DNA of 64,000 nucleotides from an uncultured Tateyamaria sp. (GTDB taxonomy: Bacteria > Pseudomonadota > Alphaproteobacteria > Rhodobacterales > Rhodobacteraceae). The notes under the pieces were generated by a model. The model did no database searches, was not told where the DNA came from, and worked only from the letters and a program-made list of their open reading frames with translations. Each line of letters begins with the position of its first letter. Position 1 is the first letter of the stretch. Below, piece by piece: positions 48,427 to 52,900 of this stretch. The translations under genes and the position numbers were made by a program. The stretch spans positions 62,001 to 126,000 of the forward strand of contig NZ_CANMBJ010000005.1 in the NCBI RefSeq assembly GCF_947496075.1. Direction: 5' to 3'.

Positions 48427-48795
48427 CTACGGCGTATCCAGTGCTTTCTCCACGGCATGCTTCAACGCGTCGTATTCCCGTTGCGGGATACCCGTCATTG
48501 CAGCACTGACAGACGATACCTCGTCGGCGTAAGCGTCGGGAGCGTCGAATAGCGCCCCCGGTGCGGTGAACTGGCTACCTGTCAGATCATATCGCTCATC
48601 ATTGATCCGATTGTAGTAGTGCCAGACACCGGGCAACCGCGTGCGCAACACCTCTCCACCGAACATGTCGCAGATGACCGCCGCAGTGACATTGCACTGA
48701 CCCAAGGCGGGATTGTCCGCCTGCCATTGCACTGCCGTTTTGAGCGACCAGGCCCCATGCAATGCAGAACGTACCGTTTGTTCGTCAAAGGTCAT
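48427..48795 (-). CDS. YunG family protein
   Basis: A 122-residue protein resembling the Bacillus YunG family. The pattern NPALGQCNVTAAVICDMFGGEVLRT followed by GVWHYYNRINDERYDLTGSQF recalls papain/NlpC-like small domains (Cys then His), with Cys34 and His59 as possible active residues. No signal peptide. Convergent with trxB (9 bases apart). Function is not established for the family. Confidence 0.7.
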   Translation of the reverse strand: MTFDEQTVRSALHGAWSLKTAVQWQADNPALGQCNVTAAVICDMFGGEVLRTRLPGVWHYYNRINDERYDLTGSQFTAPGALFDAPDAYADEVSSVSAAMTGIPQREYDALKHAVEKALDTP

Positions 48796-48933
48796 GCGCC
48801 ACTGCTCTCCGCTTCATTAACGCCAATGCTATCGCCGTCGATGGCGAACGCAACACGATCACCGTGCGACGCCTTGACCAGACGCATCGGCCCGGCCACC
48901 CTGTACCGAAGCAAAAACAAGCAAAGGGCAGTC

Positions 48934-50622
48934 ATGGCGCACGCGATCTGGCGCGGCAGTTTGGCAACAAGGATCAGGATCGTCAGCGGTCTGATCCTGA
49001 TGGTCTATCTGACCCTGCACATCCTGAATCTTGCAACGATCCTGATTTCGCCCACGGCTTTTGACACGTTTCAGGCCGCACGCCTTTGGGTGATCCGGTC
49101 GGATGTGGGCACGGCAGTGATTATGTCGGCCTTCTTGGCCCATATGCTGTTGTCTCTGGGCAAAGTCGTTGTGGCACGGACGTTGCGCATGCCGCTGACC
49201 GACTGGGTGCAGATCCTCTTGGGCCTGCTGATTCCCATCATGTTGGTGGATCACCTGATATACACCCGCGCCGCACACGAGATGCTGGGCGTCACCACGA
49301 TGTTTGGATACGTCAACCGGCTGATCTGGGGGACGGGGGATGGCTGGGCACAAGCCGTTCTTTTGCTGGTGGCGTGGGGCCATGGCTGGATCGGCCTGCA
49401 CATGTGGCTGCGCCTGACATCCTGGTGGCAACGGGCCATCCCATGGCTGATCGGCATCGCGGTCATATTGCCGACGCTGGCCCTGGTTGGGTACATGACC
49501 TTTGCCCGCACAATCACCGGATTGCTCAGCAATCCGCGCGCTGAAGAGGTGGCGCACGCGGCGTGGAACTGGCCCGACGCACAGGGCTTCGCGGCGCTGG
49601 CCGCCGCCGCCAACAACATGACGCTGGCGGTCTGGGCCGTGCTGGGGTTCGCCATTGTCGCCTTTCTGGCGCGGCGCGGGCTCGCGGCCATCGCCCGCCC
49701 CATCCGCATCCACTATGTGGACGGGCCCAGCGTCCGGGCCCCGCGTGGTCAGACCATTCTTGAAACCTCCCGCAGCAGCGGTGTCACCCATACGGCTCTG
49801 TGTGGTGGGCGGGGTCGGTGTACGACCTGCCGCGTGATTGTCGAGGAAGGGCTGGAAGACTTACCTGCCCCGTCAGAGGCCGAACAAAAAAGCCTGATCG
49901 CCGTGAACGCGCCGCCCAACGCACGGTTGGCCTGCCAAGTGCGGCCCACAAGCTCGGTTCGGGTGTTCCGCGTCTTTGACCGCGATGGCAAACGCGGGCG
50001 CGCCCATGCCAGTCAGGGCAAAGAGGCGCAGCTGGCTGTTTTGTTTCTGGACATGCGCGGGTTCACAGCCCGGACGGATGGGCAATTGCCCTATGACGTT
50101 GTGCATCTGCTGAACCGCTTTTTTGACGAGATTGTCCCCCCGATCAACGCCGCCGGCGGGACGGTGGACAAGTATATGGGTGATGGGCTGATGGCGGTGT
50201 TCGAAAGCGCCACCGCCGAAATATCCGCCCGCTCCGCCATTCAGGCGGTTGAGGGTATTGGCAAAGCCCTCGCCGACTTCAATCAAAGACTGGACAGCGA
50301 AGGCAGCGCACCGGTGGCCATTGGGATCGGCGTGCATCTGGGCAATGTTGTGCTGGGCGAAATTGGCGCTGCGGGTCACGCCCCCCGCACGCTGATCGGT
50401 GACACCGTGAACATTGCATCGCGATTGGAAAGCGAGACGAAGGCGCGCAGCGCGCAAGTGCTTGTGTCTATGGACACGTTGCACGCCGCCGGTCTGGACG
50501 CGCCCAAGGATGTCGTGGTGTCCTTGTCACTGCGCGGGCGCGAGGCGCCGCTGGAGGCGGTCCCCTTGGCCAATGCAACCGATATCGGCGCCCTTGCGCT
50601 GTGGATTGCCGCACCTGCCTGA
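48934..50622 (+). CDS. Membrane-bound class III adenylate cyclase with histidine-rich anchor and [2Fe-2S] domain
   Basis: A 562-residue protein in three parts. Residues 1-265 form about six membrane helices with histidines at 29, 70, 107, 150 and 156, similar to the diheme-b anchor of succinate:quinone oxidoreductases. Residues ~265-355 are a plant-type [2Fe-2S] ferredoxin domain (CGGRGRCTTCRV and a later ACQV). Residues ~365-530 are a class III cyclase catalytic domain (VLFLDMRGFTART, DKYMGDGLMAVF, LIGDTVNIASRLE). This is the layout described for Sinorhizobium CyaC, a quinone-responsive adenylate cyclase. Start at 48934 (AAAGGG upstream). It probably couples respiratory redox state to cAMP; heme binding here is inferred. 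Confidence 0.87.
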   Translation: MAHAIWRGSLATRIRIVSGLILMVYLTLHILNLATILISPTAFDTFQAARLWVIRSDVGTAVIMSAFLAHMLLSLGKVVVARTLRMPLTDWVQILLGLLIPIMLVDHLIYTRAAHEMLGVTTMFGYVNRLIWGTGDGWAQAVLLLVAWGHGWIGLHMWLRLTSWWQRAIPWLIGIAVILPTLALVGYMTFARTITGLLSNPRAEEVAHAAWNWPDAQGFAALAAAANNMTLAVWAVLGFAIVAFLARRGLAAIARPIRIHYVDGPSVRAPRGQTILETSRSSGVTHTALCGGRGRCTTCRVIVEEGLEDLPAPSEAEQKSLIAVNAPPNARLACQVRPTSSVRVFRVFDRDGKRGRAHASQGKEAQLAVLFLDMRGFTARTDGQLPYDVVHLLNRFFDEIVPPINAAGGTVDKYMGDGLMAVFESATAEISARSAIQAVEGIGKALADFNQRLDSEGSAPVAIGIGVHLGNVVLGEIGAAGHAPRTLIGDTVNIASRLESETKARSAQVLVSMDTLHAAGLDAPKDVVVSLSLRGREAPLEAVPLANATDIGALALWIAAPA

Positions 50623-50687: not shown

Positions 50688-50715
50688 AAAGTTTGTTCTT
50701 CCATGAACAAACTTT
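50688..50715. promoter_or_regulatory. Perfect 11-bp-arm inverted repeat upstream of the MarR-sulfurylase frame
   Basis: AAAGTTTGTTC, six bases, then GAACAAACTTT, followed shortly by a second smaller palindrome GTTCACCCGTGAAC (50727-50740). The location immediately before a frame beginning with a MarR-type domain suggests an autoregulatory operator. As there is no T-run after the arm, it does not look like a terminator of the cyclase gene, though it could also lower read-through. Confidence 0.6.
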
Positions 50716-50748
50716 CTGTGAAATGTGTTCACCCGTGAACGCAACCGA

Positions 50749-52833
50749 ATGCATGTGATGTCAGCTGCACCCAAATCAACACCGGAAAGCGACGACCAGT
50801 TGTTCCGCCTGTTGCGGCAACTGGATCAAGCCTCTGGTGTCACCCAACGCGCTATGGCGCAAGAGATTGGCGTGTCCCTTGGACGCCTCAACACCCTTTT
50901 GCGACAGGCAACCGATGCGGGGTTTGTTCAGGTGAACGACATGGACGGCCCGGACAAGCGGCAACGCTTTTCCTACGCGCTCACCACGCGGGGGGCCGCC
51001 GAAAAGAACAGGCTCACCGATCAATTCCTCGCCCGCAAGTTCGCGGAATACGACGCACTTTTCGCCGAACTGACCGGCACCACGTCCGGGTTAAACCCCC
51101 TGAAACACAGGACCAAATTGATGGAAAACAACCTTGCTCCGATCCCTGAGCTGTATGTCTCCTATGACAGCGCCCAGAAGATGAAGATGGAAGCGGCCGA
51201 CCTGGTAAGCTGGGATCTGACCCCGCGCCAGATCTGCGACCTGGAATTGCTGATGAATGGCGGTTTCAACCCGCTCAAGGGGTTCCTGTCGGAAGCGGAC
51301 TACAACGGCGTTGTGGAGACCATGCGCACCGCGGATGGTGCCTTGTGGCCGATGCCTATCACGTTGGATGTAAACGACAAATTCGCGAGCAGCCTCGAAA
51401 TCGGTCAGGACATCGCCCTGCGCGACCAGGAAGGCGTGATCCTCGCCACCATGACGGTGACTGACCGCTGGACCCCCAACAAGAGCCACGAGGCCAAGAA
51501 GGTTTTTGGTGCCGATGACAGCGCCCATCCGGCCGTGAACTACCTGCACAACACTGCGGGCGAGATCTATCTTGGTGGTCCGATCACTGGCATTCAGCAG
51601 CCCGTGCATTATGATTTCCGCGGACGTCGCGACACGCCGAATGAGCTGCGCGCCTATTTCCGCAAGATGGGTTGGCGCAAGGTCGTGGCCTTCCAGACCC
51701 GCAACCCCCTGCACCGCGCGCACCAGGAGCTGACCTTCCGTGCCGCCCGCGAGGCCCAGGCCAACTTGCTGATCCACCCGGTTGTTGGCCTGACCAAACC
51801 CGGCGATGTCGATCACTTTACCCGCGTGCGCTGCTACGAGGCCGTCCTCGACAAGTATCCGCAGGCCACCACGTCGATGAGCTTGCTGAACCTGGCCATG
51901 CGCATGGCCGGCCCACGCGAGGCGGTCTGGCACGGCCTGATCCGCAAGAACCACGGCTGCACCCACTTCATCGTTGGTCGCGACCACGCCGGCCCCGGCA
52001 AGAACTCGGCCGGTGAGGATTTCTATGGTCCCTATGACGCGCAGGACCTGTTCCGCGATCATCAGGAGGAGATGGGCATCGAAATGGTCGACTTCAAACA
52101 CATGGTCTATGTGCAGGAGCGCGCCCAGTACGAACCCAATGACGAGATTGCGGACAAGGACAATGTCACCATCCTGAATATCTCGGGCACCGAGCTGCGC
52201 CGCCGTCTGTCCGAGGGTCTTGAGATCCCCGAATGGTTCAGCTTCCCCGAAGTGGTCAAGGAGCTGCGCCGCACCAAGCCGCCGCGTTCGCAGCAGGGCT
52301 TTACCGTGTTCTTCACCGGCTTTTCCGGGTCGGGCAAGTCGACCATTGCCAACGCGCTGATGGTCAAGCTGATGGAGATGGGCGGTCGTCCTGTAACCCT
52401 GCTGGATGGTGACATCGTGCGGAAGAACCTGTCCTCGGAACTGGGCTTTTCAAAAGAACACCGTGACCTGAACATCCGCCGCATCGGTTATGTCGCGTCC
52501 GAGATCACCAAGAACGGTGGCATCGCGATCTGTGCCCCTATTGCACCCTACGCGACGACCCGTCGGGCCGTGCGCGAGGATATCGAAGAGTTTGGCGCTT
52601 TTGTCGAAGTGCACGTCGCCACCTCGATCGAGGAATGCGAGCGCCGCGACCGGAAGGGGCTCTACAAGCTGGCGCGGGAAGGCAAGATCAAGGAGTTTAC
52701 CGGCATCTCTGATCCCTATGACGTGCCACAAAGCCCCGAGCTGAGTGTCGAGACCGAGAACGTGGACGTGGACAACTGCGCCCACCAGGTTTTGCTGAAG
52801 CTGGAAAGCATGGGGTTGATCGCCGCCGAATAA
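50749..52833 (+). CDS. MarR-like DNA-binding domain in frame with sulfate adenylyltransferase/APS kinase
   Basis: One uninterrupted frame of about 694 codons. Codons ~10-115 form a MarR-type winged helix like the EPS-associated MarR group (LFRLLRQLDQASGVTQRAMAQEIGVSLGRLNTLLRQATDAGFV). After a 15-residue linker comes a bifunctional enzyme starting MENNLAPIPELYVS (ATG 51121): ATP sulfurylase with RNPLHRAH and GRDHAG, then APS kinase with Walker A FSGSGKST. Together the enzymes make PAPS from sulfate and ATP. An AGGA eight bases before 51121 allows separate translation as a 570-residue normal-length enzyme, so it may be a fusion, a stop-loss overlap, or both. The start of the first part is uncertain (50725, 50749 or 50758, none with a good ribosome site). 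Confidence 0.85.
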   Translation: MHVMSAAPKSTPESDDQLFRLLRQLDQASGVTQRAMAQEIGVSLGRLNTLLRQATDAGFVQVNDMDGPDKRQRFSYALTTRGAAEKNRLTDQFLARKFAEYDALFAELTGTTSGLNPLKHRTKLMENNLAPIPELYVSYDSAQKMKMEAADLVSWDLTPRQICDLELLMNGGFNPLKGFLSEADYNGVVETMRTADGALWPMPITLDVNDKFASSLEIGQDIALRDQEGVILATMTVTDRWTPNKSHEAKKVFGADDSAHPAVNYLHNTAGEIYLGGPITGIQQPVHYDFRGRRDTPNELRAYFRKMGWRKVVAFQTRNPLHRAHQELTFRAAREAQANLLIHPVVGLTKPGDVDHFTRVRCYEAVLDKYPQATTSMSLLNLAMRMAGPREAVWHGLIRKNHGCTHFIVGRDHAGPGKNSAGEDFYGPYDAQDLFRDHQEEMGIEMVDFKHMVYVQERAQYEPNDEIADKDNVTILNISGTELRRRLSEGLEIPEWFSFPEVVKELRRTKPPRSQQGFTVFFTGFSGSGKSTIANALMVKLMEMGGRPVTLLDGDIVRKNLSSELGFSKEHRDLNIRRIGYVASEITKNGGIAICAPIAPYATTRRAVREDIEEFGAFVEVHVATSIEECERRDRKGLYKLAREGKIKEFTGISDPYDVPQSPELSVETENVDVDNCAHQVLLKLESMGLIAAE

Positions 52834-52842
52834 GGCGGGGCG

Positions 52843-52900
52843 GAGGGCACCTCCGCCTTACTTTAAGACGTAAGGCGCACCATTCTGGTGCGCCTTTTTC
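52843..52900 (+). terminator. Tandem terminator
   Basis: GGCGGAG with CTCCGCC gives a first small hairpin. Then AAGGCGCACCA, a three-base loop, and TGGTGCGCCTT followed by TTTC form a strong 11-bp terminator stem (52872-52896). Confidence 0.88.

What the first reader, a model, noticed from the sequence alone, without database searches (positions are those of the whole stretch)
50749..52833. MarR-type DNA-binding domain in continuous frame with sulfate adenylyltransferase/APS kinase
The first ~115 codons look like the EPS-associated MarR winged helix, and the frame then runs without a stop into the bifunctional PAPS-forming enzyme, whose usual start is at 51121. A true fusion would put a transcriptional regulator on the sulfate-activating enzyme, possibly linking sulfated exopolysaccharide to sulfate activation. 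An internal ATG with an AGGA site means both long and short products could be made.
Basis: partly seen in the sequence, partly recalled or inferred. Interest (0 to 1): 0.75.

Follow-up and report, generated by a model that had tools for sequence, protein, structure and literature searches.

The report
Self-repressing sulfate-activation enzyme with two starts
In many marine Roseobacter-group bacteria the enzyme that activates sulfate carries its own DNA-binding head, sits behind a matching DNA target at its own promoter, and has a conserved second start that should also make the enzyme without the head.

Summary
The frame 50758 (or 50749)-52833 joins a short MarR-type winged helix to a complete bifunctional ATP sulfurylase/APS kinase. 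It is not an assembly error: 17 of 20 genomes of the genus (apparently Tateyamaria) and many other Rhodobacteraceae genera have the same junction. Of 76 sulfurylase loci read from relatives, 26 are fused, 50 have no MarR part, and none has a separate MarR gene beside it.

Two features are new. (1) The internal start is under selection: AGGA, written with the rare Arg codon AGG, lies 8 nt before residue 122 in 90 of 90 distinct fused loci, and a standard start codon follows in 89 of 90. A 570-aa enzyme-only form is very likely made besides the 691-aa form. (2) A palindrome GTTC-N6-GAAC, mostly GTTCA-N4-TGAAC, lies just before the long start in 90 of 90 fused loci and at none of 44 unfused promoters. 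It also precedes 16 of 16 standalone MarR relatives with recognition-helix tripeptide SLG, against 4 of 26 others.

Best reading: an autorepressing enzyme, comparable to BirA, NadR or PutA. Binding, repression and ligand are inferred. A specific exopolysaccharide link is neither shown nor excluded.

The parts
50695..50708 (.). distal operator GTTC-N6-GAAC
   Evidence: exact 32-bp spacing from the proximal copy in 17 of 17 same-genus fused loci; in 90 distinct fused upstreams 29 have a second copy within 40 bp (22 at 32 bp) and one more at 47 bp
50719..50724 (+). candidate -10 element TGAAAT (consensus TGANAT); weak -35 candidate about 17 bp upstream
   Evidence: columns -8, -7, -4 and -3 relative to the operator are 80-94% conserved in 90 distinct upstreams; not found by the sigma-70 consensus scan; inferred
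50727..50740 (.). proximal operator GTTCACCCGTGAAC (GTTCA-N4-TGAAC type)
   Evidence: 26 of 26 fused loci, 80 of 80, 90 of 90 distinct; 0 of 44 unfused promoters; same motif upstream of 20 of 42 standalone MarR genes
50758..52833 (+). long form: MarR-like wHTH + ATP sulfurylase + APS kinase, 691 aa, 77.4 kDa (alternative start 50749, 694 aa)
50782..51075 (+). winged-helix DNA-binding domain with long C-terminal helix
   Evidence: TIGR04176 8e-24, under its cut-off; AlphaFold2 pLDDT 82.6; MarR-family chains rank first in PDB; median dN/dS 0.144
51076..51120 (+). linker GTTSGLNPLKHRTKL, of nearly constant length
   Evidence: no stop in 26 of 26 fused loci or 80 of 80; dN/dS 0.24 for residues 106-121
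51109..51112 (+). internal Shine-Dalgarno AGGA (rare Arg codon AGG + A)
   Evidence: 90 of 90 distinct fused loci; most extreme codon conservation among 362 invariant residues
51121..52833 (+). short form: free ATP sulfurylase/APS kinase, 570 aa, 64.0 kDa, from internal ATG
   Evidence: start codon ATG 73, GTG 15, TTG 1, ATA 1 of 90; unfused relatives start at about the same place
52291..52830 (+). APS kinase domain, P-loop GFSGSGKST intact
   Evidence: PF01583 E 3.2e-59; G521 and S523-T529 invariant in 57 sequences
52872..52896 (+). terminator-like hairpin after the gene
   Evidence: 11 pairs then a T run; the scan found 2 such sites against a shuffle mean of 2.1

Best explanation
A dual-start, self-repressing enzyme. 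The long form (691 aa) is an ATP sulfurylase/APS kinase with a MarR-type winged helix at its N-terminus. It binds GTTCA-N4-TGAAC palindromes that overlap its own transcription start and lowers its own transcription. An internal Shine-Dalgarno and start codon on the same mRNA yield the 570-aa enzyme without the DNA-binding head, probably the larger share of the catalyst. Because head and catalytic domains share one chain, DNA binding is probably set by what the enzyme holds; a product such as PAPS or APS as co-repressor is the likeliest. Shown by sequence: the fusion, selection on both protein parts, selection on the internal start, co-occurrence of operator and head, and association of the operator with the recognition helix. 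Inferred: binding, repression rather than activation, and the ligand.
For: Fusion conserved: 26 of 70 loci, none with a separate adjacent MarR; a profile of the head found nothing in the 44 others or in six further loci; 90 of 394 family genomes have a high-scoring copy, 88 in frames of at least 690 aa and two fused up to contig ends. Selection on the head: median dN/dS 0.144. Internal start: AGGA in 90 of 90 distinct loci, codon ATG 73, GTG 15, TTG 1, ATA 1. AGG is 32 of 1350 Arg codons in 26 fused genes, 26 of them at this site. R118 is AGG in 57 of 57 rows, the most extreme of 362 invariant sites, and all 11 Val codons at the start residue there are GTG, which is 39% of Val codons. Operator: 90 of 90 distinct fused upstreams, 0 of 44 unfused promoters. 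Same motif upstream of standalone MarR relatives: 20 of 42; 16 of 16 with helix tripeptide SLG against 4 of 26 without, Fisher 3e-8. In the 35 loci aligned by tblastn about 0.2 matches were expected, control patterns gave 1, and none lay in the gene or behind it. Fused heads are SLG in 56 of 57. The window's genome has 15 GTTCWN4WGAAC sites against 11 for the reversed control; only the two at this promoter form a close pair before a gene start. QTRNPLHRAH, GRDHAG and the P-loop glycine/lysine columns are invariant in 57 rows.
Against: No binding, expression or protein data were available. The SLG-operator association is not corrected for relatedness, and 22 of 42 standalone relatives lack the motif. 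In the genome scan the motif is barely above control (15 vs 11). The sulfurylase tree has many weak branches. Some fused loci have poor or odd long starts (L012 has no ATG, GTG or TTG between operator and wHTH), so the long form may be rare or lost in some species. The head falls just below the MarR_EPS cut-off. No sigma-70 consensus promoter was found at the site. The full-length AlphaFold model was poor (mean pLDDT 57), so nothing is known here of domain contacts.
Confidence: 0.8

Rival explanations
1. True fusion and autoregulator, but the enzyme domain is a passive passenger: the head senses nothing through the enzyme, and the fusion merely makes repression follow enzyme amount (homeostatic feedback).
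For: Standalone relatives with the same motif have no enzyme domain and may autoregulate too; the linker is low-confidence and possibly flexible in the model.
Against: Nearly constant linker length and retention of one chain across many genera; a separate short form would weaken pure amount-counting.
Confidence: 0.35
2. Only the long form is made; the internal AGGA and ATG are leftovers of the ancestral free-standing gene.
For: The fusion must have arisen next to a gene that had its own start; a relative with a decayed leader, L045, keeps the site.
Against: A leftover would decay: median dS between these genes is above 1, yet AGGA is 90 of 90 and a standard start codon 89 of 90, with a rare Arg codon.
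Confidence: 0.06
3. Only the short enzyme is translated in vivo; the MarR part is an untranslated leader.
For: The long start has a weak Shine-Dalgarno in the window; L012 lacks a canonical long start.
Against: Head dN/dS 0.144 and linker 0.24, no stops in 106 fused loci, and an SD-like GAGTC before the ATG in many loci.
Confidence: 0.04
4. The palindrome is bound by another regulator, and the head has some other target.
For: No binding data; in the genome scan the motif is little above control (15 against 11); 22 of 42 standalone relatives lack it.
Against: Operator and head are present or absent together, and the motif stands upstream of unlinked standalone genes of the same wHTH family according to their recognition helix.
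Confidence: 0.1

Closest known systems
MarR_EPS (TIGR04176), EPS-associated MarR-type regulators
   Same: Same wHTH sequence family; standalone relatives share the GTTC-N6-GAAC motif upstream in 20 of 42.
   Different: Here it is fused to an enzyme, scores 83.7 against a cut-off of 88, and is not next to EPS genes.
Bifunctional sulfate adenylyltransferase/adenylylsulfate kinase (NF004040; fungal ATP sulfurylase 1i2d/1m8p, Aquifex 2gks)
   Same: Full-length match to the short form.
   Different: The solved relatives match from residue 132 or later only, so they show no such head. The fungal C-terminal domain is a PAPS-binding regulator without kinase activity (PMC3734648, passages); here the P-loop is intact.
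Trigger enzymes with a DNA-binding domain: BirA, NadR, PutA (recalled; for PutA only the abstract in a search listing, PMC9132996)
   Same: A metabolic enzyme carrying a DNA-binding domain, expected to regulate its own gene.
   Different: Different enzyme and DNA-binding family; here a conserved internal start also makes the enzyme without the head.
BzdR (PMC3602430, abstract seen)
   Same: N-terminal DNA-binding domain joined by a linker to a domain of kinase descent.
   Different: BzdR's shikimate-kinase-like domain has lost catalysis; here the catalytic motifs are invariant.

Membership tests
MarR_EPS TIGR04176 | score over the curated cut-off (88 bits) | tested here: not met
   83.7 bits for 50749-51120
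MarR_EPS TIGR04176 | located beside EPS genes (feature recalled from the family name) | tested here: not met
   eight neighbouring genes scanned, none an EPS gene by Pfam; two standalone relatives, L167 and L168, do sit beside sugar-epimerase or glycosyltransferase-like genes by eye
MarR-type winged helix (fold) | wHTH with wing and long helix resembling MarR structures | tested here: met
   pLDDT 82.6; top PDB matches are MarR family, best E 2.6e-5, TM about 0.5
bifunctional SAT/APS kinase NF004040 | score over cut-off and intact catalytic motifs | tested here: met
   1044.6 vs 669; QTRN, GRDH and P-loop columns invariant; the motif roles are recalled
trigger enzyme (enzyme that is also a regulator) | catalytic and DNA-binding domains on one chain | tested here: met
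trigger enzyme (enzyme that is also a regulator) | a binding site at its own promoter | tested here: inconclusive
   candidate site conserved in 90 of 90; binding itself not shown
trigger enzyme (enzyme that is also a regulator) | DNA binding controlled by substrate or product | not testable with these tools
   needs EMSA or reporter with PAPS, APS, ATP, sulfate

The most novel reading that the evidence does not exclude
The long form senses PAPS or APS in its own active sites and gates transcription, while the internally started short form mixes into the same oligomer and sets how many DNA-binding heads it carries. That would be a one-gene circuit for sulfate activation in which translation-start choice tunes a metabolite-sensing repressor.
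Probability: 0.35. Interest if true: 0.85.

Novelty: new variant of a known kind. Interest (0 to 1): 0.72.

Why it matters
How Roseobacter-group bacteria control sulfate activation is, as far as I know (recall), not described. This gene holds the only sulfurylase match in the window's genome. The find gives a candidate operator, regulator and two protein forms, all testable and conserved over many genera. It also suggests an operator (GTTCA-N4-TGAAC) for the SLG subgroup of EPS-type MarR regulators. NCBI's best family model for the chain names only the enzyme, so the regulator is easy to miss. Nine of my ten literature searches bore on this system or on comparable regulators; none of their listings showed a report of it. 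Listings were capped at 8 to 15 papers, several out of hundreds, and the library lacks most subscription journals.

Tried and rejected
EPS/sulfation as the specific function: not supported by neighbours. Sequencing or assembly artefact: rejected. A frameshift releasing a free MarR: considered because an SD-like site can stimulate frameshifting (recalled). The other frames of the window stop 8 and 20 codons after 51120, but no common slippery sequence is visible in the linkers while the start codon is kept, so rejected. Sigma-70 scan: nothing at the promoter. Full-length AlphaFold model: too poor to use. A four-row trial alignment (A2) had badly cut ends and was not used. Wider regulon: no second operator pair in the genome scan; degenerate sites were not tested. 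Operator-fusion pairing on the tree: the operator label was set equal to the fusion label, as searches found, with the motifs at -178 in L052 and -257 in L054 counted as absent, so it only counts independent changes. Proteomics in print: a 64.39-kDa sulfurylase/kinase in Roseobacter litoralis (PMC4103551, one passage) probably comes from a plasmid-borne unfused copy, so it does not bear on the two forms.

Selections and dropped rows: the 80 loci (best 80 of 126) were found with patterns from the fused query, so 80 of 80 fused is biased; searches are the fairer counts. Of the sulfurylase matches, 70 loci were read first; G049, G100, three partial matches and a split second copy in G069 were added on checking and have no head; the partial, fused G051 was read apart and is outside the 76, as are smaller fragments. 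The operator count (0 of 44) does not cover the six added loci. The tree uses 131 of 150 loci (duplicates and short ones dropped). dN/dS uses 856 to 1442 of 1596 pairs, saturated or too-similar ones dropped. In one search, 7 of 42 standalone loci were missed by tblastn; one search recovered all 42 by profile. Its helix parser misread L177, L185, L200 and L210 and counted them as not SLG; by eye L177 is ALG and the others STG, so the table is unchanged.

Full report
What is there. The + strand frame from 50749 (more likely 50758) to 52833 is open and encodes a winged-helix domain, a short linker, an ATP sulfurylase and an APS kinase. The head matches TIGR04176 MarR_EPS at 83.7 bits, slightly under the curated cut-off of 88, and Pfam HTH_24 above its cut-off; the rest matches the bifunctional enzyme model NF004040 at 1044.6 bits. 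AlphaFold2 on the head alone gives pLDDT 82.6, with a helix-turn-helix, a wing and a 30-residue long helix; the best PDB matches are MarR regulators, E 2.6e-5 at best and TM about 0.5. The neighbours are, by Pfam, an Lrp/AsnC regulator, a pyridine-nucleotide-disulfide oxidoreductase (called trxB here by eye), a YunG protein, a 2Fe-2S/nucleotide-cyclase protein, a PhzF-like protein, an Rrf2 regulator, an MFS transporter and a multicopper oxidase.

Is it a real fusion? Yes. Among 148 genomes (the window's own and its relatives), 122 have some match to the protein. Of 70 sulfurylase loci read, 26 carry the head in frame with no stop, 44 carry no head, and none has a separate MarR gene upstream. 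Six of the 44 have an open leader of over 100 codons, but a profile of the head finds nothing in any of the 44 or in six further loci. In the window's genus 17 of 20 genomes are fused. A search of 394 family genomes with the head alone gave a gapped distribution: 90 genomes score 112 bits or more, 88 of these in open frames of at least 690 aa and two running into contig ends, where the fusion was seen directly. I did not read every one of the 88. The next match scores 79 bits and is a standalone gene. A genome-contig scan found 126 relatives and kept 80, all fused, among them Tateyamaria, Sulfitobacter, Phaeobacter italicus, Roseovarius, Shimia, Pelagimonas, Planktotalea and Loktanella; it used patterns from the fused query, so this is not an unbiased rate. 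A class-level sample of 289 genomes gave two matches at E 1e-20 or better, both within the family. The head is under purifying selection: median dN/dS 0.144, against sulfurylase 0.073, kinase 0.05, linker 0.24; dS is near saturation, so these are rough.

The internal start. AGGA lies 8 nt before the codon of residue 122 (window 51109-51112 and 51121) in 26 of 26 and 80 of 80 fused loci, 90 of 90 distinct ones; the codon is ATG in 73, GTG in 15, TTG in 1 and ATA in 1. AGGA uses the Arg codon AGG, which makes up 32 of 1350 Arg codons in 26 fused genes, 26 of them at this one site. In 57 aligned genes it is the most extreme case of codon conservation among 362 invariant residues. Much of the linker around it varies. 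Unfused relatives start their enzyme at about the same place, and one genus member, L045, has a decayed leader with stops but still keeps AGGA and the ATG. AGGA stands near the start in 3 of 44 unfused loci. So the gene very probably makes a 77.4-kDa long form and a 64.0-kDa short form (masses).

The operator. Immediately before the long start lies a palindrome GTTC-N6-GAAC, mostly GTTCA-N4-TGAAC: 26 of 26 fused loci, 80 of 80, 90 of 90 distinct upstreams. In the window's genus a second copy lies exactly 32 bp upstream in 17 of 17, about three turns of DNA. None of 44 unfused loci has it at the promoter; two have isolated matches at -178 and -257. In the window's genome GTTCWN4WGAAC occurs 15 times against 11 for a reversed control, so the bare motif is hardly enriched genome-wide, but only these two sites form a close pair in front of a gene start. 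The motif begins 2 bp behind a conserved TGANAT element, so it would overlap the transcription start, which suits repression; this placement is inference, and the sigma-70 consensus scan found nothing here.

Linking operator to head. Forty-two standalone relatives of the head were read. Twenty have GTTC-N6-GAAC within 400 bp upstream: all 16 whose recognition helix carries SLG, and 4 of the 26 others (Fisher 3e-8, not corrected for relatedness). In the 35 of them aligned by tblastn, chance predicts about 0.2 in 14,000 upstream bases, control patterns gave 1, and none lay in the gene or the stretch behind it. The fused heads are SLG in 56 of 57. This makes the palindrome the likely target of this wHTH subgroup and suggests that the fusion brought its autoregulatory site with it.

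History. Fused and unfused copies sit at the same place: trxB is upstream, on the same strand, in 73 of 80 fused loci, and present beside 35 of 44 unfused ones. On a sulfurylase tree of 131 sequences the fusion label needs at least 20 changes on the best tree, of which starred branches force 6. With a nearly constant linker, one origin and repeated loss of head plus operator is the simplest history, though transfer is not excluded.

How it probably works. The long form binds its promoter and lowers transcription; both forms are translated from one mRNA; what the catalytic domains hold probably sets DNA binding. Support for a product as signal is indirect. The closest solved relatives by sequence are fungal ATP sulfurylases, in which PAPS is an allosteric effector through the kinase-like domain (PMC3734648, passages); and the fungal enzyme is reported to be specifically related to that of Rhodobacterales, which lack CysN/CysD (PMC2275785, passages). 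The window's genome fits that: one PAPS_reduct match, a 252-aa protein with CCALRK and GCAPCT. A figure legend in PMC2275785 gives CCXXRR/K and GCXPCT as marks of one group of reductases, in a section on isoforms that do not bind FeS (passage); that the marked group is the FeS-binding, APS-using one is recalled. If so, cysteine synthesis can run from APS, and the PAPS from the kinase half would feed sulfotransferases, of which the genome has 16 or 17 family places, or act as a signal. Whether the signal is PAPS, APS or something else is not known.

Against. There is no experiment. The long start is weak in some species and absent in canonical form in L012. The full-length model was unusable.

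Noticed in passing
L171-L210, L167, L168: Standalone EPS-type MarR genes split by recognition helix: SLG members have GTTC-N6-GAAC upstream (16 of 16), the others mostly do not (4 of 26), suggesting a second, unknown operator for the latter.
   Followed up: partly
plasmids NZ_CP143424, NC_015729, NC_008387, NZ_CP049347 and six more: Ten plasmid records, six of them Roseobacter or Sulfitobacter, carry sulfurylase/kinase copies 84-92% identical whose match begins at residue 115-131, so without the MarR head.
   Followed up: no
L045 (G019), upstream of the sulfurylase: A relative with a decayed MarR leader holding stops, but with the internal AGGA and ATG kept.
   Followed up: partly
L012 / L093: A fused locus with no ATG, GTG or TTG between the operator and the winged helix; the long start is unclear.
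   Followed up: no
window 48619-50622: A protein with a 2Fe-2S ferredoxin domain followed by an adenylate/guanylate cyclase domain (Pfam) and a hydrophobic N-terminal part by eye.
   Followed up: partly
whole genome G000, e.g. C11:1746-22012: 16 or 17 sulfotransferase-family places in one genome, four of them on contig C11; 12 of 14 control genomes have none by PF00685 or PF13469 and all 14 none by PF03567.
   Followed up: partly
L079 (G000:C4:476591): A single GTTCTCATTTGAAC about 50 bp upstream of what looks by eye like an error-prone DNA polymerase gene; may be chance.
   Followed up: no
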